From IMG/VR virus record IMGVR_UViG_3300043119_000974, positions 1-42,602 of that record: a stretch of DNA of 42,602 bases. One strand, written 5' to 3'. Source of the stretch: a virus. This document shows, one piece after another, positions 1-32,240 of the stretch (positions within the stretch are counted from its first letter, which is position 1; each line of letters begins with the position of its first letter). Under the pieces are notes generated by a model. It had not been told where the DNA came from and made no database searches. It saw nothing but the letters and a program-made list of their open reading frames with translations. Both the position numbers and the translations under genes were made by a program.

Positions 1-1110
1 TTACCACCGCGCCTCCTTCGACTCTAAAACCGACGCCAAAGACTTCATGTCTTGGGGCGCGAGATGGGCATACCTCATTGTGGTTTGGATGGCTTTGTGT
101 CCCATCCAATCCTTGACGTGTTTGAGAGGTACACCACGCTGTATCAACCGCGAACAGCAAGTGTGTCGCAGTGCATATGGAACGAACTGTTCGTCGTCGT
201 CCAGTTTCATCACGTGCTTCACCTTGTTCCAGACACGTTCAAACCAATAGTTCGTAGCGTTGGGGAAGAGTGTAACCCCGTCCCATACAAGATGGTCTTC
301 GTCGCCAACAATACGCGTAGGGAGTTCATCTAGGCGTGTGCGGATTGTTTCCACCACTCTTTTGGTCATTGCAATAGAGCGCGGATTGTCGGTCTTGTTC
401 TCCCATATTGAGATGAGGCCAGTGTTGAAGTCAATGTCATTGAGTTTCAACCGCCACAGCTCCGAAGGACGCATTCCTGTGTCTATCAGTATCACGAACG
501 CATCAGCATGGTCGTCGAGGCTCCACTGCTTGAGCAGGTTTACGCATACACGCTCTTCGTCCTCGCTCAAGAAGCGGATTCTGCCACCTGTTTCTTTCAA
601 GCGCGGGAACTTGGGTTTCGCCTTGAGCTTTCCGCGTTCGATTGCCATCGTAAACAACTTGGACAACGCCGACATCTTGCGATTGATCGTAGCGTTTGAG
701 TTGTTGTGCTCTTCAATCAACCATTCCTTGTATTCATCCAGTGCAAGGCTGTCGATTTTATCAAGAGGCTTGTCAGGGCCAAAGAAGCGGACCGCATAGT
801 TTGCGTTGATGACAGCTTTTTCTTCTCCACCAGTGCCAGCCCAGTGGTGCCGTATGGTGTACTGAAGGGCTTGGTTGAGCGTCCAGCCGCCAGTTACCGC
901 CTTTTCCTCGTTCTTCCCGTCGAGGCCGCGCTTCAGAGCTTCCTTGAGTTCTGTCCGTCGAGTGATTGCTTCTTCAAGGGTTGCGCAAGTCGCGGTCTTG
1001 CGCTTCCCCTTAACCATTACGTCCACAAAGAACCGACCGTTGCGGAGCCGGATACCTCTCGGTAATGTTTGAGTGTTTTTCGTCGTTGTCGTTGTTGCTT
1101 TTCTCGCCAT
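1..1110 (-). CDS. int: Tyrosine-type phage integrase
   Basis: This 369 aa protein is a tyrosine recombinase that would integrate and excise the phage by strand exchange between attP and the tRNA attB site. It has an N-terminal SAM-like core-binding region (about 75-165) and a C-terminal catalytic domain. The catalytic set is visible: R214 in TGMRPSELWRLK, K239 in ENKTD, R315 in YALRHTCCSRL, H338 in WMGHK and nucleophile Y347 in MRYAHL. The usual first His of the HxxR box is Tyr312, a tolerated change in some members. The ATG has the strong site GGAGG upstream. It lies 40 bases after the MarR-like gene and is probably cotranscribed with it. In the circular phage, attP would follow directly and then the RNA polymerase gene, an arrangement also reported for integrase-carrying podoviruses. 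Confidence 0.95.
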   Translation of the reverse strand: MARKATTTTTKNTQTLPRGIRLRNGRFFVDVMVKGKRKTATCATLEEAITRRTELKEALKRGLDGKNEEKAVTGGWTLNQALQYTIRHHWAGTGGEEKAVINANYAVRFFGPDKPLDKIDSLALDEYKEWLIEEHNNSNATINRKMSALSKLFTMAIERGKLKAKPKFPRLKETGGRIRFLSEDEERVCVNLLKQWSLDDHADAFVILIDTGMRPSELWRLKLNDIDFNTGLISIWENKTDNPRSIAMTKRVVETIRTRLDELPTRIVGDEDHLVWDGVTLFPNATNYWFERVWNKVKHVMKLDDDEQFVPYALRHTCCSRLIQRGVPLKHVKDWMGHKAIQTTMRYAHLAPQDMKSLASVLESKEARW

Positions 1111-2796: not shown

Positions 2797-3336
2797 CTAG
2801 TTGCGCCAGAAAACATAGAACTCGCCATCTTCACCGTGTTCGCCGTACATATCCGTCATGAACAAGTCTCGTGCAAACTTTTCATAATCGAAGTAGTTCC
2901 TGACTGTATCCGGCACGTTATCGAGATAGCCAAGCTCGTCAACCAGCTCGTAAGCAAAGTCCTCTTCGTCTTTGTACGTTCCGCGATAACTATCCTCGAA
3001 GTTTTCTTTCGTCGCGTAGTCACTTCCAACGAAGCCGACATACACGCGCCAAGCCTCGCCGTATTCTTCGAGCATTTCAGCGTGTTTGATAAATGTCTCA
3101 AAGCCGTCCCATTCGCCTAAGTCTAAGCCGTGAAAGCCTTCGTAGTCATGAATAGCCCATTCTTCCGCTTTCTCGCCGTATTTCTTTGCCGTAGGCGATT
3201 CTTTCAGCATTTCATTTACTTCGTCCCATACTTCTTCAACCGTTGTTGATCCGTCTATGTCAATCCAACGCCCGTGAAGAACAGCGTTGTTGTAGTCGGA
3301 AAGGCTTGCAACGTAGATTCTGTATTCGCTTGTCAT
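2797..3336 (-). CDS. ardA: ArdA-family antirestriction protein
   Basis: This is a 179 aa, very acidic protein of the ArdA family, whose members mimic the shape and charge of B-form DNA and inhibit type I restriction enzymes. Family hallmarks are present: an N-terminal IYVASLSDYNNAVLHGRWID, the central DYEGFHGLDLGEWD, a repeat of short acidic aromatic segments (EDSYRGTYKDEEDFAYELVD) and the terminal NYFDYEKFARDLFM ... FYVFWRN. The start at 3336 follows AAGGAG; an upstream start would ignore that site. It is among the first genes read from the early promoters, the place where T7 has its unrelated DNA mimic Ocr (gp0.3), so the role on entry is probably the same. Confidence 0.92.
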   Translation of the reverse strand: MTSEYRIYVASLSDYNNAVLHGRWIDIDGSTTVEEVWDEVNEMLKESPTAKKYGEKAEEWAIHDYEGFHGLDLGEWDGFETFIKHAEMLEEYGEAWRVYVGFVGSDYATKENFEDSYRGTYKDEEDFAYELVDELGYLDNVPDTVRNYFDYEKFARDLFMTDMYGEHGEDGEFYVFWRN

Positions 3337-3349
3337 GGCTGTTACTCCT

Positions 3350-3610
3350 TTAGTTGTGAATATCAACTATTATACGCCCTTTTTCCGCGTGTTTAGTTTT
3401 TATGTAGGTTGTCGGACAATTGCTATACTGCATTGCGTATACACGGTACCAACGTCCTTCCCACTTGATCATGTATTCTGTCGGTATGTCTTTGCCGTAT
3501 CCACTTGCCGGGATACGCGGTTCACGTACTGCCTTCACACGGTGCGGTACCGATTCAAGGCATTTAGGCATATTTGATATTCCGAAGCCGTGCGCTAGAT
3601 AAAACTGCAT
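3350..3610 (-). CDS. Small hypothetical early protein
   Basis: This 86 aa protein is of unknown function. The start at 3610 (MQFYLAHGFGISNMPKCLES) is preceded by AAGGAG, unlike the longer reading. It is basic in the middle (PHRVKAVREPRIPASGYGKD) with a WEGRWYRVYAMQYSN segment near 52-66, which looks like a small beta-sheet domain. It lies between the 66 aa gene and ardA with gaps of under 20 bases, consistent with one early transcript. No family recognised. Confidence 0.7.
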   Translation of the reverse strand: MQFYLAHGFGISNMPKCLESVPHRVKAVREPRIPASGYGKDIPTEYMIKWEGRWYRVYAMQYSNCPTTYIKTKHAEKGRIIVDIHN

Positions 3611-22467: not shown

Positions 22468-22596
22468 TTAGTTGTCGATGCGGACAGTGCCGCTGGGGAG
22501 TTCGGTCTTGATGGGCTTAGATTCGCCGGGGGTCTTGTCGGCGGGGTTGGAACGAACTGCCTTTTCAGGGGCTTCGGTTTCTTTCTTCTTAGCCAT
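22468..22596 (-). CDS. Small Lys/Pro-rich protein between portal and scaffold genes
   Basis: This 42 aa reading frame starts with ATG at 22596, eight bases after AAGGAG. It overlaps the portal stop codon by 8 bases, a typical tight phage junction, and ends 20 bases before the scaffold gene. The sequence MAKKKETEAPEKAVRSNP begins with a basic cluster and continues Pro/Lys/Glu-rich and probably unstructured, ending GTVRIDN. No similarity was recognised. Coding is supported by the ribosome site and spacing. Confidence 0.65.
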   Translation of the reverse strand: MAKKKETEAPEKAVRSNPADKTPGESKPIKTELPSGTVRIDN

Positions 22597-24136
22597 TCGG
22601 ACTTGCTCCTTGCTGTTTTCCAATCATGCGCATTGCTTCAGGGCCAAGCTGCTGAATGAGACTCTGCATCTGAGCCGCTTGCTGCGCTTCTGCGATTTGT
22701 TCTTTGGATTTGATGAGACCATCAGTGTCGATGCCGTCAGCGGTTGCCAGACGGGAGATGGCATCATCGACATGGACGTATGTTTGAAGCACTTCGGGAC
22801 CAAGCACCTTGCCGAGGGTTCCGAGGAAGTTGACGAGCTTGTTCCTGTCATGGCCTCTTCCAAGAGCTTCAAGGCCAGTGACGATGGAAGGCTTGACCAC
22901 ATCCTTCGGGAGCGGCGGGAGCTTCCCTTGCTTCTGGAGTTTGTTCATCTTCCTGTTCACATACGGAAGCTGGAACTCCTGTGTGAGTATGGAATAGATA
23001 CCGCCAAGGCGGGTTTCGAGTTCTTGAGCTGTGATGCGTACCTCTTCTGCGGTGACACGTTCGGCGTCACGCTGTACGCCCTGCATGAGCAGGAATGCGC
23101 GGGACAGTCTTTCCGTGATCATCTGAACGGTCTGAAGAGCTACACGGAAGTCTGCGAACTTGTTCATCTGAAGAACAGTCACGTCTTCGGCGACACCTTC
23201 TCTGACTGCGCCGTTGGGAGCGGATGCGATGGTCTTCGCCCTTGTGGTTCCGTTGGGATTCACGAGGAGAAGAACTTTCGCAGCCACGGCAGAACCTTCG
23301 ACGATAGCCTGCATGAGAGCTTCGAGGGACTTGAGGTCGCCTAAATGCTCCTCAACGTAGGAACGTCCGTAGTCTTCACCCTCGATCCTGTTGAGACGGA
23401 GAGGAATCCACGGACAAGCGTCGAGCGGGTAGGTACCAAAAGTGCCGGGGATCTTCCTTCCCATGCACTCTTGGTAGATGGTCCAGCGGTCATGTTCACG
23501 TTTGATGTGCGTGAACAGTTCAATGTGCTTGGAACCGCCTTTCTGCTTTTCCCTGTCTTTGAGCTTGGACTTGATCTTCTTGTAGAAATCCTTGGGCAGC
23601 GCGTCCGGTGCCACGTTTTCCATGACCACAAGTTCAATGGGGTTCCCCATCGGGTCACGTCGGCACACGAAGCGGTCAAGGTGGAAGACGCGAATACCGT
23701 CCATTCCGTCGTACAGAAGGACGTTTCCAGCGACGATCAGGTGTTTGAGAGACTCAAAGACTGCAACACGGTCAGATGAGCATTCAATGTCAGCCATCAC
23801 GGTCCGCTCGACCTTGCCCAATGCCTTCTCAACATCTGTCTTCCATTCTTCATCCTGCTGTTCTTCAAGGAGCATGTCCTCGATCTTCAGCCTGAAGAAT
23901 GGCTCGTTGGGAGGGAGCAGTGTGATGAGCAGCTTTGACGCGAGGTTGTTCGCGCCTTCTGCGCCGATCCCCTGAAAAGGGGTGACGATCTTTGACTGGG
24001 ACGTATGTCCTTCGGGAGGGAGGAGGCTTGGGAGCGTGAGCTTCGCACACTCCCTTGCCCTCTTCAGAAAAGGTTCGCGCTCAGATTCAAGAACACGATA
24101 CCGGGATTCGGCGGTACCTACGTCTTTCGTAGACAT
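22589..24136 (-). CDS. Portal / head-tail connector protein (T7 gp8-like)
   Basis: This 515 aa protein (T7 gp8 is 536) forms the dodecameric portal at one vertex through which DNA is packaged and ejected. Family features are the N-terminal RYRVLESEREPFLKRARECA, IGAEGANNLASKLLITLLPP, LYDGMDGIRVFHLDRFV, and the helical AERVTAEEVRITAQELETRL ahead of a C-terminal helical barrel with Gln-rich EAQQAAQMQSLIQQ. It follows two small genes in the usual podovirus order. Confidence 0.95.
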   Translation of the reverse strand: MSTKDVGTAESRYRVLESEREPFLKRARECAKLTLPSLLPPEGHTSQSKIVTPFQGIGAEGANNLASKLLITLLPPNEPFFRLKIEDMLLEEQQDEEWKTDVEKALGKVERTVMADIECSSDRVAVFESLKHLIVAGNVLLYDGMDGIRVFHLDRFVCRRDPMGNPIELVVMENVAPDALPKDFYKKIKSKLKDREKQKGGSKHIELFTHIKREHDRWTIYQECMGRKIPGTFGTYPLDACPWIPLRLNRIEGEDYGRSYVEEHLGDLKSLEALMQAIVEGSAVAAKVLLLVNPNGTTRAKTIASAPNGAVREGVAEDVTVLQMNKFADFRVALQTVQMITERLSRAFLLMQGVQRDAERVTAEEVRITAQELETRLGGIYSILTQEFQLPYVNRKMNKLQKQGKLPPLPKDVVKPSIVTGLEALGRGHDRNKLVNFLGTLGKVLGPEVLQTYVHVDDAISRLATADGIDTDGLIKSKEQIAEAQQAAQMQSLIQQLGPEAMRMIGKQQGASPNG

Positions 24137-24576: not shown

Positions 24577-24597
24577 GCTCATTAGTGCAACCTAATT
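24577..24597 (-). promoter_or_regulatory. Phage RNA polymerase promoter P5 (head operon)
   Basis: Minus-strand AATTAGGTTGCACTAATGAGC. The TAG inside AATTAG is the stop codon of nrdG, so gene end and promoter are fused. It drives the virion genes from 24562 downward. It shares CACTAATGAG with P6, differing from the CACTAGTGAACC type of P1, P2 and P4. Confidence 0.9.
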
Positions 24598-25029
24598 GAT
24601 TTTCCAGATATTCTGGTTGGTTGTGGCCAACTTCACTCCGTGTTTGAAATGCATGTCGGAACGGAGTTCTTCCACGTACTTGCCAGTTTTGATGAAAGCG
24701 CAGAGCGTAGTGATGTCGTGAGGAATTTCATCCAGTTCCCGGCTGGTAAACAGCCACACATCTTTGCCGAAGTTGCGCAGCCAAGTCAGGAAGGAACGAA
24801 GCTCTTCATGTTCCTGATCCAGAGGTTCACCACCAAGAATCCAGACGCACTGAACGAGAGACTCCCGCAGCTTTTTCTCAAGCGACGGGAGTCTCATCTT
24901 CCAGTCTTTCCCTTGTTTGAAGTCCCAACTCTCAGGGTTGTGGCAGCCGGGACAGTGTGTCCGACATCCTGCGAGATACACCTCCAACGCCTTGTGTTTG
25001 AGGCTGTATTCCGTCGTGAGGATGTTCAA
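24592..25029 (-). CDS. nrdG: Anaerobic ribonucleotide reductase activase
   Basis: This 145 aa radical-SAM protein makes the glycyl radical on NrdD by reductive cleavage of S-adenosylmethionine. It has the iron-sulphur motif C22-RTH-C26-PG-C29, where the spacing C-x3-C-x2-C is diagnostic, and GGEPL at 66-70 for SAM binding; the length is typical of NrdG. It starts with TTG at 25029, five bases after AAGGAGG, and directly follows nrdD, whose last codons hold the ribosome site. The pair makes deoxyribonucleotides from host ribonucleotides without oxygen. Confidence 0.95.
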   Translation of the reverse strand: MNILTTEYSLKHKALEVYLAGCRTHCPGCHNPESWDFKQGKDWKMRLPSLEKKLRESLVQCVWILGGEPLDQEHEELRSFLTWLRNFGKDVWLFTSRELDEIPHDITTLCAFIKTGKYVEELRSDMHFKHGVKLATTNQNIWKIN

Positions 25030-26937
25030 TCATACCTCCTTGTAGAACTGACGGTGAGGCCAGTCATGTTTCCTGCGGACGACGTTCCAGTTCTTGGTGT
25101 TCGTGAGGAAGCCGACCACACGGGTGAACTCTTCCTCGACAGGCTGTCCGCAGACCGTGCAGAAGCTGTCACTTCCAACCGTCACATGACCGAGAGAGCA
25201 CCGCTGGATCGTGTAGTTGATCGCCCAATAGACAACGCCTTTGGACGCACAATAGCGAATCAGCTCTTTCACACGCTCCTTGTCGGTGATCCTTTCAGCC
25301 ACATTGACGTGCATGATTGCGCCGCCGCTGAAGTGTTCGTCGAACAGTCCCTGAAGAGCCACGCGATCCAGAAGGTCCGCTTCGGTAATGAGCGGGATGA
25401 ACTGGTTCGAGTAGTACGGATGACCAGTCTCATATCCGAGGAGGTTGTCCTTCTTGGCGATCTTCACTGAGGAGTTCTCAGCCGGAACCTGTTCCACGTT
25501 GTGAGGCGCACCGTAGGCATTCTGCATTGCGTCATTGGTGGCATTCACCATCTTGAGACAACGCAGCACAAACGCCTGCCCGTCCTCGGTCAGGATGTCG
25601 TGGCCCATGAGTTCACACGCTTCGTTCAGGCCAGTGATCCCACAGGTGGAATACTGCCGCTTGAGGTCCATGAGGCCGAGCGAATACAGCGGCAGGGAGC
25701 CACGCTTGATGCGGTCCCGGATGAACTCACGCTTGGCGTTGTTTACGGTAGCTGCCACCCTGACGAGGGTGTTGAGGTTCGCCATGAAGCGATCTTCATC
25801 TCCATCGGAAAGGACAGCGATCCGAGGCAGGTTTAACGTCACGACGCCGAGACTGCCGATCTTGGTCGCTCCTGCACCGAAGGTGTTAGAGTAGCCAAGT
25901 CCTTCCATGTCTGAACGGAGGCGGCAGCACGAGGACAACGTGCTCGACTTCCCGCAATAGATGTTGATGAACCCGTATTCCAGATTCTTCTCTGCGATCA
26001 TGTCGAGGAACTCGTCGTCCCGAAGGTTCTTCTCGTCGTCGATTGCAAAGCAAGCCGTCACCACAGGGAAGGTGATGGGCGTCCTGCGAAGGGTTGCGTT
26101 CATGCAGTCGAGGAAGAGCTTCTGCACATTGACGATAGTCTCGATCTTAGGCGTTTCACCGTCGATCATGTAAGCCGGGGAAAGTTCTTCAAGGAACTTC
26201 CTGTCGTATACGCTGACGTTGGTGAAAGGGGACTGGTTGCCACGGAACTCCCAGTTCAGTGTGTAGATCAGTGAGGTGATCTGTTCTCGGACATAGGTCC
26301 ACGCTGCTTCCTGATTTGCGAACTTGAAGTGGTGGTCCGCAAACGAGCCGTCCTCCTGCGCCATCTTGTCCACGAAGTAGGACGCCACTAACAGGAGGTC
26401 TGCCAATCCTGTTGCTCCGAGCGTTGAGTTCGCCGCATACACCGTGAACTGTTCGACCTGACGGATGAAGGAGTGCAGCGACTTGGGACGGGACACGTCC
26501 AGTCGATTGCTCATCTTCAAGCCCTCAAGGGCAATGTCGTAAGTCGAGTAGTTGAAGCAGTACGGGCGACCGATGTCCCATACGTCGTTGATGTAGATGT
26601 CGCCTTTGATCTGCATCTCGATGATGGTGTTCGCGGTTTCAAGACCGTGCAATTTCTTGATGGTCTTCCACAGGTTGAAGTAGCTGTTCAGCTTCATCTG
26701 CGGCTTGGGAACCTCGAACGTGTAGGTGATGACATCCTTACCGCAGACGTTGGCGTTCGCATCCACGGAGTGGTCGGCAACAGTGGTTTCGGAGTTGAAG
26801 AACTCCTTGCTCATATGGTGGATGTCCAGTTGTTCACCTACGCCGTCGATGTTGAACAACTCCGCAGGGTACCTGGAACGCAAGTAATGCCAGAGATCGC
26901 AGAACTCTTGGTCGTAAGAGGCATGGAGGTACAGCAC
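25030..26937 (-). CDS. nrdD: Class III (anaerobic) ribonucleoside-triphosphate reductase
   Basis: This 635 aa enzyme reduces ribonucleoside triphosphates using a glycyl radical. The radical site is Gly609 in FTRVVGFLT. Active-site cysteines are visible as C127 in DIGRPYCFNY and C337/C338 in STLSSCCRLRSD. The zinc site near the end is C580-SLGH-584 and C593-TV-C596, i.e. Cys, His, Cys, Cys in place of the usual four Cys. The protein begins directly with catalytic-domain sequence and lacks an N-terminal ATP-cone, so overall-activity feedback by dATP should be absent. The start is GTG at 26937, seven bases after GGGAGG, overlapping the upstream stop as TAGTG. Confidence 0.95.
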   Translation of the reverse strand: MLYLHASYDQEFCDLWHYLRSRYPAELFNIDGVGEQLDIHHMSKEFFNSETTVADHSVDANANVCGKDVITYTFEVPKPQMKLNSYFNLWKTIKKLHGLETANTIIEMQIKGDIYINDVWDIGRPYCFNYSTYDIALEGLKMSNRLDVSRPKSLHSFIRQVEQFTVYAANSTLGATGLADLLLVASYFVDKMAQEDGSFADHHFKFANQEAAWTYVREQITSLIYTLNWEFRGNQSPFTNVSVYDRKFLEELSPAYMIDGETPKIETIVNVQKLFLDCMNATLRRTPITFPVVTACFAIDDEKNLRDDEFLDMIAEKNLEYGFINIYCGKSSTLSSCCRLRSDMEGLGYSNTFGAGATKIGSLGVVTLNLPRIAVLSDGDEDRFMANLNTLVRVAATVNNAKREFIRDRIKRGSLPLYSLGLMDLKRQYSTCGITGLNEACELMGHDILTEDGQAFVLRCLKMVNATNDAMQNAYGAPHNVEQVPAENSSVKIAKKDNLLGYETGHPYYSNQFIPLITEADLLDRVALQGLFDEHFSGGAIMHVNVAERITDKERVKELIRYCASKGVVYWAINYTIQRCSLGHVTVGSDSFCTVCGQPVEEEFTRVVGFLTNTKNWNVVRRKHDWPHRQFYKEV

Positions 26938-28105: not shown

Positions 28106-28453
28106 CTAACGGTTGTCTCCGTTCCCGCGCAGGACGCCACGGTCCTTGCGGTCGTAGAGCTTCATGAGGTTCTTCTCTGCCACTTCACCAAGGGACAGGC
28201 CGTGGAAACGGGCAAGTTCGGAGAGGAACCACAGAACATCACCGAGTTCCTTGCAGACTTCCTCCTTGGAAACAGGTGCCTTGTCGCCACGGAAGACTTT
28301 GCCGATCTTGCCGCAGACTTCACCAGCTTCACCCGACAGCCCGGTAGTTAGATAGGCCAGCGCGGTTTCTTCAGGATAGATCGCAGTGCCAGCCGCCAGT
28401 TTCTGGTAGGTGTCGAATGCAGACTGGTTGGGGAGAATATGAATGCTTGCCAT
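28106..28453 (-). CDS. MazG-like nucleotide pyrophosphohydrolase
   Basis: This 115 aa protein belongs to the all-alpha NTP pyrophosphohydrolase (MazG-like) group, which hydrolyses (d)NTPs to monophosphates and pyrophosphate. The metal-binding pattern is visible as LSGEAGEVCGKIGK (about 39-52) and VCKELGDVLWFLSELARFHG (about 66-85), i.e. E-x-x-E plus E-x-x-D. The C-terminal AEKNLMKLYDRKDRGVLRG is typical. It starts in a TAATG junction with the preceding gene. In phages it may tune nucleotide pools or the ppGpp response. Confidence 0.9.
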   Translation of the reverse strand: MASIHILPNQSAFDTYQKLAAGTAIYPEETALAYLTTGLSGEAGEVCGKIGKVFRGDKAPVSKEEVCKELGDVLWFLSELARFHGLSLGEVAEKNLMKLYDRKDRGVLRGNGDNR

Positions 28454-28818
28454 TAGTTCTTGCTCCAGAAAGCCTCACAATGTGCGAGGGTTGAGTTCTT
28501 GGGACGGTCGTCGAACTGTTCCATTCCACGACACTGGTAGGTGTAAAGAGCGATGGCGCACCATGCGACAGAGAGCAGGTGGTGCTGCCCGTCCACCTCG
28601 TCATAGTCGTCTCCCATGAACCATTTCCATGCGTGACGTTCCATCGCGGAGAAGAGGCGGTGGAAATCCATGCCTTCTTCCCATCCACGGTCGGCATACT
28701 TACGTGCGCCGCGTTCATACAGGGAAGCGAGGCCGTGCATGGCTTCGGCAGGGATGAGATCGAAACGAGGTTTGCCGAAGTCCTTCTTGAGCTTGTCGCC
28801 TACTTCGGGGGATGCCAC
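28453..28818 (-). CDS. dATP/dGTP diphosphohydrolase-like protein
   Basis: This 121 aa protein resembles a family of phage dNTP diphosphohydrolase domains. Conserved stretches are KPRFDLIPAEAMHGLASLYE (about 16-35), RGARKYADRGWEEGMDFHRL, FSAMERHAWKWFMGDDYDEV and GQHHLLSVAWCAIALYTYQC. The His and Glu/Asp residues along these helices are probable metal ligands. The start is GTG at 28818, after AAGGAGG. It overlaps the exonuclease by 19 bases. Related proteins in some phages (MazZ) take part in diaminopurine DNA synthesis, but no PurZ homologue is in this window. Confidence 0.8.
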   Translation of the reverse strand: MASPEVGDKLKKDFGKPRFDLIPAEAMHGLASLYERGARKYADRGWEEGMDFHRLFSAMERHAWKWFMGDDYDEVDGQHHLLSVAWCAIALYTYQCRGMEQFDDRPKNSTLAHCEAFWSKN

Positions 28819-29561
28819 GGTTTGACCTCCTTCTTTTTGAAGTTGTAGTCGGAAGCGTGGCAGATACGGGCGATCTGCGCCTGTACCAATGCCTCTTCCT
28901 CGGACAGCTTCGCTTTCTCAAACGCTCCCACTACGACAGGCCACATCTCCTTGTAGGAGGTAAGGCCGTCGAGCAGACGTTCAGCCTTAACAGGACCGAT
29001 CCCCGGACAACCCGGATAGCCATCAGTGGTGTCTCCGGTGAGAGTCTGCGTCATGTGCTTGAGTGCAGCCTCTTCTTCGGAAACAAGGTAGATGCCGAAC
29101 TCCGGCTTTCCGAAGTTGAAGTGGAGGCCGGGAACGGTGTCCAAGTCCTTGTCCATCGACACGATGATCTTCTCGCCCTTCACGATATTCTTTGAGGTGG
29201 CGAGGATGCCGAGCACGTCATCCGCTTCCAGCTTCGGACGCATGAAGGACTTGAACTCTTCGAGCATCCATTCCTTGAGGACAGGCAGAAGGAACGGCTT
29301 TGCCTTGTCGTCGCGGTTGGATTTGTACTTGTGGAAGATGTCCTTCCTGAAGTTCTCATCGGGATCGGAGATCGCAACTATTGCTTCATCGGCTTCAAGG
29401 GTTTCCTTGAGGCTTTCGATACGGTCTTCGACGGCGACTTTCGCTGGACCAGCATCGGCCCACACAGACCAGAAATCGCCGCCCCAGTGGACAGCTTTCT
29501 GTTCCGAGGCGGCGATCTGGTAGGCGATAATGTCACCATCTATGAGGATGGTTCGTTTCAT
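28800..29561 (-). CDS. 5'-3' exonuclease (T7 gp6-like)
   Basis: This 253 aa FEN/PIN-family nuclease degrades host DNA and removes RNA primers. Metal-binding motifs are DGDIIAY (D8, D10), DPDENFRKDIFHKYKSNR, PKLEADDVLGILA and VSMDKDLDTV; the helix-hairpin-helix region reads DTTDGYPGCPGIGPVKAERL. T7 gp6 is 300 aa. The start overlaps the stop of the ThyX-like gene as ATGA. It is placed directly after the replication and methylase genes and upstream of nucleotide-pool genes. Confidence 0.93.
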   Translation of the reverse strand: MKRTILIDGDIIAYQIAASEQKAVHWGGDFWSVWADAGPAKVAVEDRIESLKETLEADEAIVAISDPDENFRKDIFHKYKSNRDDKAKPFLLPVLKEWMLEEFKSFMRPKLEADDVLGILATSKNIVKGEKIIVSMDKDLDTVPGLHFNFGKPEFGIYLVSEEEAALKHMTQTLTGDTTDGYPGCPGIGPVKAERLLDGLTSYKEMWPVVVGAFEKAKLSEEEALVQAQIARICHASDYNFKKKEVKPWHPPK

Positions 29562-30133
29562 TCGTTAGTCCCTCTTTTGCGCTTGTGCGCTTTGGCGACG
29601 TACTCATCGCCGCTGTACTTCTCCCACATCTGCGTCACACGTCCGCACGTGCCGCGCCCTTCGTAGCAATAGCCGCCACGGTAGACGCACTCAGGCACAA
29701 GCCGTGCTGCCAGTGCTGGATCGACGCCGAGGAGGAGACACTTGCGGATGTCCTCCATGATCTTGCGGGTTTCTTCATGAGCGCGGAAACACAGACGCTT
29801 GCGGGACCAGTTGATGAGGCTCTCTGCATTGCACAGGACCGCGTGGTTCACTGGCGTCCAGCGGTCGGCCTTGCCGTCACCGCCAAGGTCTTCGCGATTG
29901 GTCTTCACCCAGTGCTCCATCCACGTCTTGTGACGCACGTTATGAACGGACGCGAAGGTCGGGATGCCGTGCATCTCGATCCAGAAAAGCTGCGTCCTGA
30001 TCGGGGAGTGCGCCAGACGGTAGGCAAGCTCAAGGCTCATCGTGCTCTCGTGACCGGAGGTGAACTCGTTGGCGCGTCGCAAGAGGGATTCGCTGGTGAG
30101 CTTGCGGACGATGATGTCTCCACAGTTCTTCAT
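29558..30133 (-). CDS. Divergent ThyX-like protein
   Basis: This 191 aa protein resembles flavin-dependent thymidylate synthase. Matches are SPIRTQLFWIEMHGIPTF with His just before (compare the H-S-P/V-x-E-H region), VRHKTWMEHWVKTNRED in place of RHRxxSxNExSxRY, NAESLINWSRKRLCFRAHEE followed by TRK (compare the N-A-R-x-L-x-x-F-x-x-x-R ... E-x-R helix) and a C-terminal PECVYRGGYCYEGRGTCGR Cys tail that some ThyX proteins have. The catalytic Ser and the motif Tyr are not in place and the usual G-V-x-x-E-x-A-R block is missing, so activity is uncertain. The gene starts after AAAGGAAG and overlaps the exonuclease start. Confidence 0.5.
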   Translation of the reverse strand: MKNCGDIIVRKLTSESLLRRANEFTSGHESTMSLELAYRLAHSPIRTQLFWIEMHGIPTFASVHNVRHKTWMEHWVKTNREDLGGDGKADRWTPVNHAVLCNAESLINWSRKRLCFRAHEETRKIMEDIRKCLLLGVDPALAARLVPECVYRGGYCYEGRGTCGRVTQMWEKYSGDEYVAKAHKRKRGTNE

Positions 30134-30146
30134 TAGATGTCTTCCT

Positions 30147-30638
30147 TTAATTGAGATTAACCAGTCGCCCTAAGAGCTTTTGGTTGTGCAGGGCTTCTGC
30201 GATTGCCTGAGTGTCTTCTGAAGAATATGAAACGAGGCAGGAAGGAGCGTTGGCTGTCCCGCCTTGCACGCCGTTCACATGATAAAAGCGAAGCCGCCCT
30301 TTAAAGAAAAAGACGGCTTTCGCTTTGTTCCAGATTTCTGAATGGAACCCTTTCGTTTCTGTTCTAGCAAAAATGAGTGCAATGCCTCTTCCGTGCTCTG
30401 CCAACTTATTAAGCCATTTGAATGTCTCCCGTCCGTAAGGGGGATTACACCACACTCGTCCGTACCAAGGCTTGCACAGGCCATCATCCAGCACAGTGTA
30501 ATGGTTCTGTGCTGTTGGCCACGGACGCTTGACTGGCGAACATGGGTCCAAATCAAACTCTCCAAGGGCAGTAATAATTTCAGGCGGTGTCAGCCACTCA
30601 TCTTTGTTCTCAGTGTTTGAGTTGAAGTCACGGGACAT
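30147..30638 (-). CDS. Phage N6-adenine DNA methyltransferase (Dam-like)
   Basis: This 163 aa protein matches the short phage N6-adenine methyltransferase family. The N-terminus DEWLTPPEIITALGEFDLDP is the family signature, and the catalytic motif is CNPPYGRE (N-P-P-Y) near 64-71. GIALIFARTETKGFHSEIW and FFKGRLRFYHVNG are further conserved segments. It would methylate phage DNA to evade restriction or mark it. The ATG forms TAATG with the rha-like stop and follows AAGGGAG. Confidence 0.9.
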   Translation of the reverse strand: MSRDFNSNTENKDEWLTPPEIITALGEFDLDPCSPVKRPWPTAQNHYTVLDDGLCKPWYGRVWCNPPYGRETFKWLNKLAEHGRGIALIFARTETKGFHSEIWNKAKAVFFFKGRLRFYHVNGVQGGTANAPSCLVSYSSEDTQAIAEALHNQKLLGRLVNLN

Positions 30639-31402
30639 TACGCAGCTCCCTTGTAAGCGTTCTCGTAGCCGCGCTTCATGGTCAGCTTGCCAGCACGATA
30701 GAGTTCGACAATCTTCTGCTTGCCCTTATCGAGGACGATGATCTCGACATAGCCGCGCTCTCCGTAGACCTTCTCAGCGAAGAGCTTCTCACGGTACTGG
30801 CTGCGAACCTTGTACGGAGCACCACTGTGACGGCGGTACAGGTAGCCAGCGTTCATGAGGTCTTCCTTCACCTTCATGGAGTTCACGCCACGAAGGGTAC
30901 GGGCGAACCGTGCGATGGTGATGCAGCGGTCAGCGAACGCCTTCTCATAGACTGCGGCCTTGGGAGCAAGAGCTTTGGTCTGTGCTTCAAGAGCCATCTT
31001 CTGTTCAACCTGATCTGCCCATGCACGAGCGGCTTCAACAGGGTTGGTGAAGTCGGGCAGGACATTCGCCTGTCGCTTCATCAGTTCGGCTTCCATGCGG
31101 TTGAAGGCTTCGATGTACTTGAGCTTCCAAGCGAGAGCCTTGTCTCCGTTGAAACCCATCACGAGCAAGGAGAAGCCGTCACGGTCCATGAGGAACATGG
31201 GCTGTTCTTTGTTCTGAGCGTTGATGTAGGAGGACTGTCCAAAATTGGACACTCCTTTTTCGACCAGTTTTCGGATGTCGCGCATGACATGCTGGTGGTT
31301 CTTCCCGAACACCTCAGCCACCTTGAGGCTGGTGGTCATGGCTTTGTTGTTCTCAAGGGTCACGAGTTCAGTAGCTACGGGCATGGGAGTGGTAGTGTTC
31401 AT
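30638..31402 (-). CDS. Rha-type / KilAC antirepressor-like protein
   Basis: This 254 aa protein joins an N-terminal Rha domain (MTTSLKVAEVFGKNHQHVMR, about 23-42, through LLVMGFNGDKALAWKLKYIE) with a C-terminal KilAC-type DNA-binding domain (ITIARFARTLRGVNSMKVKE and GYLYRRHSGAPYKVRSQYRE). Such proteins are phage regulators that often act as antirepressors. The start at 31402 follows AAGGAGAAATATA; longer readings would invade the previous gene. It follows the Bro-type regulator by 22 bases, so the two are probably coexpressed from P4. Confidence 0.88.
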   Translation of the reverse strand: MNTTTPMPVATELVTLENNKAMTTSLKVAEVFGKNHQHVMRDIRKLVEKGVSNFGQSSYINAQNKEQPMFLMDRDGFSLLVMGFNGDKALAWKLKYIEAFNRMEAELMKRQANVLPDFTNPVEAARAWADQVEQKMALEAQTKALAPKAAVYEKAFADRCITIARFARTLRGVNSMKVKEDLMNAGYLYRRHSGAPYKVRSQYREKLFAEKVYGERGYVEIIVLDKGKQKIVELYRAGKLTMKRGYENAYKGAA

Positions 31403-31424
31403 TATATTTCTCCTTCTTCTTTGT

Positions 31425-32165
31425 TTAAGCCGCTGCTGTGTGGTTGTGGTGGTTGCCTTTGATGAGATCACGTGCCAGTTCAAGACCGCCGGGAGTGAAG
31501 CCGTAGTTGCACTCAGGAATGACCTCGAAGTAGCCCTTGTGGATGTAGCCTTCACGAGGCCAGTAACGCTTGCCGCGCTGCTGGAGCACACCGTTGCGGA
31601 GCAGGACGACCTGAAGGTGACTGAGGGTTACACCCAGTTCCTTCGCCGCCATGCTGATAGTCCACAGGGTTTTCTTGTGGGTGCAGCGTTCGTGGAAGGC
31701 GATGGAAGGCCGAACTGCTGCTTCAAAACGAGCGCGCTTCAAACGCTCCTTTTTCAGCTTGTTCGCCATTGCGATAATGGTGTCGGGGTTTTCAACCACT
31801 TCTTCGATGAACTCAGGAGTCATGTAGACGCCGTGCTCACGAACTGCAGGGAGGACTTCGGAAGTCACCCACTTCTTGAACCTCTTGGCTTCCGGCTTGC
31901 GGGAGCGGAGGATCAGGGAGTAGAGGCCGGATTCGTTTATGATGGAAACTGCACGGACCTGATCCGTATACTGTACGGGGCAGGTCGAACGCTCGTCATC
32001 ATCCAACAGTTTCGAGAGGTTGCTGGTGTCAATTGTGAGTGCATCACACACGTCCTTAGCGACGAACCAGACTTCACCACCTTCACCCTTGAGGACGCGA
32101 ACGGTGCCGAACATTTCATGATTGAACTGAGCCGGAGCCATTGCATTGAACTTGTTGTCAGCCAT
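31425..32165 (-). CDS. BRO-N / KilAC-type antirepressor-like protein
   Basis: This 246 aa protein has an N-terminal BRO domain (VRVLKGEGGEVWFVAKDVCD, then SLILRSRKPEAKRFKKWVTS and EVLPAVREHGVY) and a C-terminal KilAC/ANT-like domain (AAKELGVTLSHLQVVLLRNG, HKGYFEVIPECNYGFTPGGL). It ends with a His/Asn-rich tail. Related proteins bind DNA and can lift phage repression. The start at 32165 follows AAAGGAG, which the longer reading ignores. It is the first gene after phage promoter P4. Confidence 0.9.
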   Translation of the reverse strand: MADNKFNAMAPAQFNHEMFGTVRVLKGEGGEVWFVAKDVCDALTIDTSNLSKLLDDDERSTCPVQYTDQVRAVSIINESGLYSLILRSRKPEAKRFKKWVTSEVLPAVREHGVYMTPEFIEEVVENPDTIIAMANKLKKERLKRARFEAAVRPSIAFHERCTHKKTLWTISMAAKELGVTLSHLQVVLLRNGVLQQRGKRYWPREGYIHKGYFEVIPECNYGFTPGGLELARDLIKGNHHNHTAAA

Positions 32166-32203
32166 CTTAAGTTCTCCTTTGTGTATGAGATGTTTGAAAT
32201 GAA

Positions 32204-32240
32204 GAAAGGCTGGTGAGGATCGTCTCCTCAACCAGCCTTC
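32204..32240 (-). terminator. Hairpin between promoter P4 and the antirepressor gene
   Basis: GAAGGCTGGTTGAGGA pairs with TCCTCACCAGCCTTTC around GACGA. It comes 10 bases after the expected start of the P4 transcript and may form a 5' stem on that mRNA as well as stop readthrough from the DNA polymerase gene. Confidence 0.6.

What the first reader, a model, noticed from the sequence alone, without database searches (positions are those of the whole stretch)
24592..26937. Phage-borne class III ribonucleotide reductase without ATP-cone and with a Cys-His-Cys-Cys zinc site
nrdDG lets the phage make deoxynucleotides without oxygen. The missing ATP-cone should remove dATP shut-off, an advantage during phage replication. 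The zinc ligands appear as C580, H584, C593 and C596 rather than four Cys. Class III enzymes are known in T4-like phages but are unusual in T7-sized genomes.
Basis: partly seen in the sequence, partly recalled or inferred. Interest (0 to 1): 0.6.

Follow-up and report, generated by a model that had tools for sequence, protein, structure and literature searches.

The report
Ordinary Thermotoga-type anaerobic phage ribonucleotide reductase
A small temperate T7-like phage carries a two-gene enzyme for making DNA building blocks without oxygen; its odd-looking zinc site is the normal one for its known enzyme subfamily, so the find is ordinary, apart from a few changed residues at the control site that could be tested.

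Summary
Window 26937-25030 (-) encodes a 635-residue class III ribonucleotide reductase (NrdD), and 25029-24592 (-) its activase NrdG. There is no ATP-cone, and C580, H584, C593 and C596 lie just before the glycyl-radical loop. But this is the standard layout of a known subfamily, NrdDh (Thermotoga maritima type). In the T. maritima crystal structure zinc is bound by CxxxHx6CxxC (PMC4493059), and the four residues align column for column; 61 of 76 aligned rows have C-H-C-C. T4 and T. maritima NrdD also lack the ATP-cone. Rarity is partly right: the one close relative among named phages is temperate T7-like Desulfovibrio phage ProddE (42.6 kb, 57%), but metagenomic contigs show nrdD-nrdG-portal to be a conserved block of this lineage. 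The most interesting remainder is at the allosteric specificity site: T. maritima Gln218 is Trp in 10 of 11 T7-like rows, and Gln210 is replaced in 20 of 20 close rows.

The parts
25030..26937 (-). nrdD, class III (anaerobic) ribonucleotide reductase catalytic subunit, 635 aa, NrdDh/T. maritima type
   Evidence: NF006127 547.4 bits over cut-off 545; T. maritima 4coi/4u3e best solved match; AlphaFold2 model pLDDT 89, TM 0.87/0.90 to 4u3e_B
24592..25029 (-). nrdG, radical-SAM activase, 145 aa, TTG start directly after the nrdD stop, SD inside the end of nrdD
   Evidence: Fer4_12 65 bits; TIGR02491 74 bits (below cut-off 126); phrog_626; spacing
25150..25200 (-). zinc-ribbon ligands C580, H584, C593, C596 (CxxxHx8CxxC)
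   Evidence: align with T. maritima CxxxHx6CxxC; C-H-C-C in 61 of 76 rows
25921..25932 (-). finger-loop SCCR motif (S336 C337 C338 R339)
   Evidence: aligned with T. maritima 328-331
25111..25113 (-). glycyl radical residue G609 (RVVGF)
   Evidence: aligned with T. maritima G621; G in 73 of 76 rows, 3 gaps
26557..26559 (-). conserved barrel Cys127 (T. maritima Cys125)
25492..25494 (-). Glu482 (T. maritima Glu495), candidate for the active-site Glu of NrdD2 enzymes
   Evidence: E in 74 of 76 rows, 2 gaps; its equation with N. bacilliformis E438 is inferred, not checked
26251..26277 (-). changed effector-site residues: T221 (T. maritima Gln210) and W229 (Gln218)
   Evidence: gap-free local alignment
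24943..24966 (-). NrdG 4Fe-4S motif C22-x3-C26-x2-C29
24371..24562 (-). 63-aa ORF (phrog_4970, unknown) between nrdG and portal, conserved in the lineage
22589..24136 (-). portal (head-tail connector), T7-like, downstream neighbour of nrdDG
   Evidence: PF12236 300 bits

Best explanation
A temperate T7-like phage of an anaerobic host (a Desulfovibrio relative is likely) carries a complete class III ribonucleotide reductase of subfamily NrdDh. NrdG uses S-adenosylmethionine and a 4Fe-4S cluster to make a glycyl radical at G609; the radical passes through a cysteine of the SCCR loop to the ribonucleoside triphosphate; C127 and an SCCR cysteine supply the electrons and are re-reduced by host thioredoxin, not by formate. 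The C-H-C-C zinc ribbon holds the glycyl-radical domain in place. With no ATP-cone there is no known site for dATP shut-off; dATP could still act at the substrate-specificity site. Shown here: the genes, motifs, fold prediction, subfamily and synteny. Inferred from characterised relatives: radical chemistry, zinc binding, thioredoxin use, lack of dATP inhibition, host.
For: Family and structure. Zinc, SCCR, Glu, Tyr124 and Gly residues aligned to T. maritima and conserved. Subfamily traits from PMC4493059 (sections 5 parts 1-2, 13 and 15 read: Zn by CxxxHx6CxxC; SCCR found only in NrdDh; unclassified phage sequences in NrdDh; SCCR mutants inactive) and PMC9669993 (section 9 read: Glu without Met in the finger loop points to thioredoxin). 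No ATP-cone, with positive controls; none in 10 of 10 further relatives. Conserved block nrdD-nrdG-orf63-portal in 8 of 10 distinct T7-like relatives, nrdG-portal in one more, one contig ends before it. Viral-only clade (SH-aLRT 99) with 10 of 11 T7-like rows in one subclade (100).
Against: NrdG scores below the NCBIfam NrdG cut-offs. Residue changes at effector and substrate-phosphate positions (T. maritima Gln210, Gln218, His114) mean regulation, and perhaps substrate handling, may differ. T. maritima NrdD could not use E. coli thioredoxin and crystallised with Ile, not Cys, at the loop tip (PMC4493059), so the thioredoxin mechanism may not be uniform in the subfamily. The loop 343-356 is predicted with pLDDT under 50. 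No host genome was available.
Confidence: 0.9

Rival explanations
1. The zinc site is a new or degenerate variant: zinc is held by other residues and H584 is incidental.
For: Other phage NrdDs in the wider set have CxxC...CxxC, where a Gly or Glu sits in the H584 column (9 of 76 rows: 8 four-Cys, 1 CxxH).
Against: C580, H584, C593 and C596 align with the crystallographic ligands of T. maritima NrdD and are kept in 20 of 20 rows of the close set; there is no fourth Cys near the site in the window protein.
Confidence: 0.03
2. The lack of an ATP-cone is a phage adaptation, lost in the phage lineage to escape dATP shut-off.
For: Phage replication needs much dNTP; all 12 close viral proteins scanned with Pfam lack the cone.
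Against: T. maritima and T4 NrdD lack it (PMC11226230, passage), as do two bacterial relatives scanned (L011, L022); some phage NrdDs keep it (L004, L009). Absence in cellular relatives argues against loss in the phage.
Confidence: 0.1
3. The gene pair is a passenger recently taken from the present host, without a set role in the phage.
For: The pair also occurs in viral contigs without T7-like neighbours (7 rows of the 18-row clade).
Against: Same place before the portal in a lineage whose NrdDs are down to 53-57% identical to the window's, and an all-viral clade. Bacterial sampling was limited by the search patterns.
Confidence: 0.07

Closest known systems
Desulfovibrio phage ProddE (MZ666938.1) NrdD/NrdG
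   Same: 42.6-kb temperate T7-like (Autographiviridae) genome with integrase; nrdDG shortly before the portal; SCCR, C-H-C-C zinc, no ATP-cone, Trp at the Gln218 column.
   Different: 57% identical by tblastn; neighbours differ: the window has ligase and dATP/dGTP diphosphohydrolase genes nearby, ProddE a polynucleotide kinase.
Thermotoga maritima NrdD (PDB 4coi, 4coj, 4u3e), subfamily NrdDh
   Same: No ATP-cone, zinc motif CxxxH...CxxC, SCCR, Tyr124-Cys125, Glu495, Gly621; TM-score 0.87/0.90.
   Different: 36% identity; window lacks the 14-residue loop insert (27 against 41 residues from SCCR to GS); Phe for Ile at the loop-tip column; Gln210 to Thr, Gln218 to Trp, His114 to Asn.
Neisseria bacilliformis NrdD (NrdDh3 / NrdD2)
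   Same: SCCR motif, thioredoxin as reductant as described in PMC4493059 and PMC9669993 (the original paper, PMC4246965, is not held).
   Different: Bacterial; not aligned here.
Phage T4 NrdD (1h79, 1hk8)
   Same: Class III fold, no ATP-cone, phage-borne (PMC11226230).
   Different: Four-Cys zinc site CxxCx14CxxC and MGCR single-Cys loop (PMC4493059, PMC9669993); TM-score by query length 0.64-0.66.

Membership tests
Class III ribonucleotide reductase (NrdD) | NRDD domain match | tested here: met
   PF13597 305 bits, cut-off 26.2
Class III ribonucleotide reductase (NrdD) | C-terminal glycyl-radical Gly after a zinc ribbon | tested here: met
   G609 aligned with T. maritima G621; ligands C580/H584/C593/C596
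Class III ribonucleotide reductase (NrdD) | NrdG activase encoded alongside | tested here: met
   Fer4_12 over cut-off, CX3CX2C; but below the NCBIfam NrdG cut-off
Class III ribonucleotide reductase (NrdD) | Glycyl radical formed and NTPs reduced | not testable with these tools
   needs anaerobic enzymology
NrdDh subfamily (T. maritima type; NCBIfam NF006127) | SCCR motif, said in PMC4493059 to be found in no other NrdD subfamily | tested here: met
   S336-C-C-R339
NrdDh subfamily (T. maritima type; NCBIfam NF006127) | Tyr124 before the barrel Cys, completely conserved in NrdDh (PMC4493059) | tested here: met
   Y126-C127; Tyr in 70 of 76 rows, 6 gaps
NrdDh subfamily (T. maritima type; NCBIfam NF006127) | Family model over curated cut-off | tested here: met
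   NF006127 547.4 against 545; the related TIGR02827 is not reached (415.9 against 568.3)
NrdDh subfamily (T. maritima type; NCBIfam NF006127) | Zinc motif CxxxHxnCxxC | tested here: met
   n = 8 in the window, 6 in T. maritima
Thioredoxin-dependent NrdD2 | Third Cys and active-site Glu, no Met at the loop motif | tested here: met
   SCCR; E482 conserved, its equation with N. bacilliformis E438 inferred
Thioredoxin-dependent NrdD2 | Activity with thioredoxin, none with formate | not testable with these tools
   needs an assay
dATP-inhibited NrdD with ATP-cone | N-terminal ATP-cone PF03477 | tested here: not met
   no hit at E<=1; positive controls L004 and L009 hit
Autographiviridae (T7-like phage) | Own T7-type RNA polymerase, T7-type replication and virion genes | tested here: met
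   phrog_414 RNA polymerase 914 bits, DNA polymerase, primase/helicase, T7 SSB, endonuclease I, tail genes

The most novel reading that the evidence does not exclude
The novelty, if any, lies in regulation of specificity, not in zinc or the ATP-cone. In the T7-like lineage the dNTP effector site is rebuilt: the Gln that faces the effector base in T. maritima (Gln218) is Trp in 10 of 11 T7-like rows, and the Gln near the effector's Mg2+ (Gln210) is Thr, Val, Ile or Ala in 20 of 20 rows of the close set, against Gln in 48 of 50 lettered rows of the rest. Such an enzyme, already without an ATP-cone, may have weakened, lost or re-aimed allosteric control of which dNTP it makes, suiting phage replication rather than balanced host pools.
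Probability: 0.2. Interest if true: 0.5.

Novelty: new member of a known kind. Interest (0 to 1): 0.22.

Why it matters
It extends the T. maritima-type (thioredoxin) class III reductase to a temperate T7-like phage lineage as a conserved gene pair. These short-loop phage enzymes lack the long disordered insert of the T. maritima protein, so they are useful subjects for an open question named in PMC4493059: whether an SCCR cysteine or another residue sits at the finger-loop tip in the active enzyme. The changed effector-site residues make a direct test of allosteric specificity possible.

Tried and rejected
Rejected: zinc site as novel; ATP-cone loss as a phage trait (PMC4390871, PMC11226230); the triphosphate-site change as unique to these phages, since T. 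maritima His114 is Asn also in 16 of 56 rows of the rest and in 4 of 9 of the other close rows, Lys501 is Lys in only 4 of those 56, and Arg116 is Arg in only 2. The idea that host thioredoxin serves both DNA polymerase and NrdD was left open: the window polymerase has a shorter stretch where T7 polymerase carries its thioredoxin-binding insert (the place of that insert is recalled). Two pattern scans found nothing, and the genome scan that worked used only two peptide patterns, so bacterial relatives are under-sampled; no Desulfovibrio genome was searched. tRNA scan: none. Literature searches for ProddE or nrdDG in T7-like phages; no listed title treats it; a paper on temperate T7-like phages (Boeckman et al. 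2022) was seen only as a reference-list entry.

Rows dropped: of 83 loci, one (L001, the window itself) and 8 exact duplicates were left out of the 76-row alignment, which adds the window and T. maritima. The tree left out 13 of those 76 rows (fragments, inserted or interrupted proteins, L031). In one search the 'T7-like' group is 11 rows (window included), the other close rows are 9 (one of them, L017, from a metagenome-assembled bacterial genome; L017 and L050 were not in the tree), and L002 (a near-copy of the window) and L026 (50% identical fragment) sit in the 'rest' of 56. My first motif scan by regular expression failed to find the glycyl motif in 38 rows and was replaced by the alignment.

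Full report
What is there. The minus strand carries nrdD at 26937-25030 (GTG start, 635 aa) and, directly after it, nrdG at 25029-24592 (TTG start, 145 aa). Both have good Shine-Dalgarno sequences, that of nrdG inside the last codons of nrdD. The NrdD matches Pfam NRDD and, just over its curated cut-off, NCBIfam NF006127.

Which NrdD it is. The only strong solved matches by sequence are T. maritima NrdD entries (E about 4e-109); an S. thermophilus enzyme is far weaker (2.6e-6). An AlphaFold2 model from 35 aligned sequences (pLDDT 89, pTM 0.90) matches 4u3e_B with TM-scores 0.87/0.90 and T4 NrdD with 0.64-0.66 by query length. The SCCR motif, Tyr-Cys at 126-127, Glu482 and Gly609 align with the T. 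maritima residues. According to PMC4493059 (sections 5 parts 1-2, 13 and 15, and passages read) SCCR is found in no NrdD subfamily but NrdDh, which already included unclassified phage sequences.

The zinc site. PMC4493059 reports that zinc in T. maritima NrdD is bound by CxxxHx6CxxC, with the metal confirmed by anomalous diffraction, and that the motif stood for 87 of 1502 NrdDs in a database of the time. The window has CxxxHx8CxxC in the same columns. Over 76 aligned rows, 61 have C-H-C-C; 3 (L068-L070) have Asp for the first Cys; 9 have Gly or Glu in the His column (8 four-Cys sites and one CxxH); 3 are gapped. All 20 rows of the close set keep C-H-C-C, although L048 has one residue rather than two between the last two Cys.

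The ATP-cone. No cone was found in the window protein even with the frame extended upstream, nor in ProddE, while two phage NrdDs in the same scan gave clear hits; 10 of 10 further relatives from the viral clade lack it. T. maritima and T4 NrdD lack it too (PMC11226230, passage), and 24% of 2426 class III proteins had none (PMC4390871, passage). That absence removes the only known dATP shut-off site, but it is not a phage novelty.

Mechanism. PMC9669993 (section 9 read) ties the SCCR motif without Met, together with an active-site Glu, to thioredoxin as reductant, as shown for N. bacilliformis (original paper not held). T. maritima needs a protein component of cell extract held back by a 10-kDa filter, and mutation of the SCCR cysteines inactivates it (PMC4493059). 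I infer the same for the phage enzyme. I found no thioredoxin or glutaredoxin among the window ORFs scanned (part of all ORFs), so the host would supply it.

Where it lies. The window is a T7-like genome with its own RNA polymerase, T7-type replication and virion genes and an integrase and antirepressors, so it is probably temperate. Among 50,697 phage records, 555 match the protein and 33 match over at least 80% of its length; the nearest by far is Desulfovibrio phage ProddE, 42.6 kb, Autographiviridae, 57%. The other 32 are under 30% identical. In viral contigs 52 relatives were found; of 10 distinct T7-like relatives (ProddE included), 8 have nrdG, the 63-aa ORF and the portal after nrdD, one has nrdG and portal, and one contig ends. 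In a 63-row tree an all-viral clade of 18 holds the window (SH-aLRT 99), with 10 of 11 T7-like rows in one subclade (100); L048 is unresolved beside it (quick search, no bootstrap).

What may be new. At the effector site T. maritima Gln218 is Trp in 10 of 11 T7-like rows and in L017; Gln210 is not Gln in 20 of 20 rows of the close set, against Gln in 48 of 50 lettered rows of the rest. The local alignment is gap-free. These counts are not independent events: they may be one or two ancestral changes. Gln161, Arg221 and Gln224 are kept in 11 of 11 T7-like rows. I offer changed allosteric specificity as the boldest reading not excluded, at 0.2.

Verdict.

Noticed in passing
window 28106-28818 (-): MazG-like pyrophosphatase (28106-28453) and dATP/dGTP diphosphohydrolase (PF18909, 28453-28818) near nrdDG; the same set lies beside nrdD in the nearest relative L052. 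Together they could set dNTP pools.
   Followed up: partly
window 29558-30133 (-): 191-aa ORF with a weak Thy1 (ThyX) match just under the cut-off (23.5 against 24.8) and no PHROG match; relatives stand directly before nrdD in L032 and L052.
   Followed up: partly
window 1-1110 (-), 2797-3366 (-), 30638-32231 (-): Integrase, ArdA antirestriction protein and two antirepressor-type genes: a temperate T7-like phage, as in ProddE.
   Followed up: partly
L008 2947-5370; L017 866-3709; L030; L081: NrdD genes with long inserts at the finger-loop cysteines (loop lengths 375, 186, 365, 304), intein-like in L008 (starts after SC, ends HN before CRL).
   Followed up: partly
L050 8351-11218: Intein-like insert of several hundred residues in loop 2, between the Gln and Ser of the NQSPFTN motif.
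   Followed up: no
L068, L069, L070 (viral contigs): NrdDh relatives whose first zinc Cys is Asp (D-H-C-C), and HN in place of HD in the substrate-phosphate motif.
   Followed up: no
nrdG of L032, L047, L036, L042, L044, L019, L022, L011: Radical-SAM motif spacing differs: CX4CX2C in L032 and L047, CX5CX2C in L036, L042, L044 and the Thermotogota rows, against CX3CX2C in the window.
   Followed up: partly
L002 (26.3-kb viral contig): A second contig 99-100% identical to the window at the protein level over nrdDG and the following virion genes.
   Followed up: no
L017 (Ruminococcus flavefaciens MAG), L026 (Bacteroides MAG): Short or edge matches of 50-55% identity in genome bins; likely phage sequence binned with, or integrated in, the named host.
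   Followed up: no
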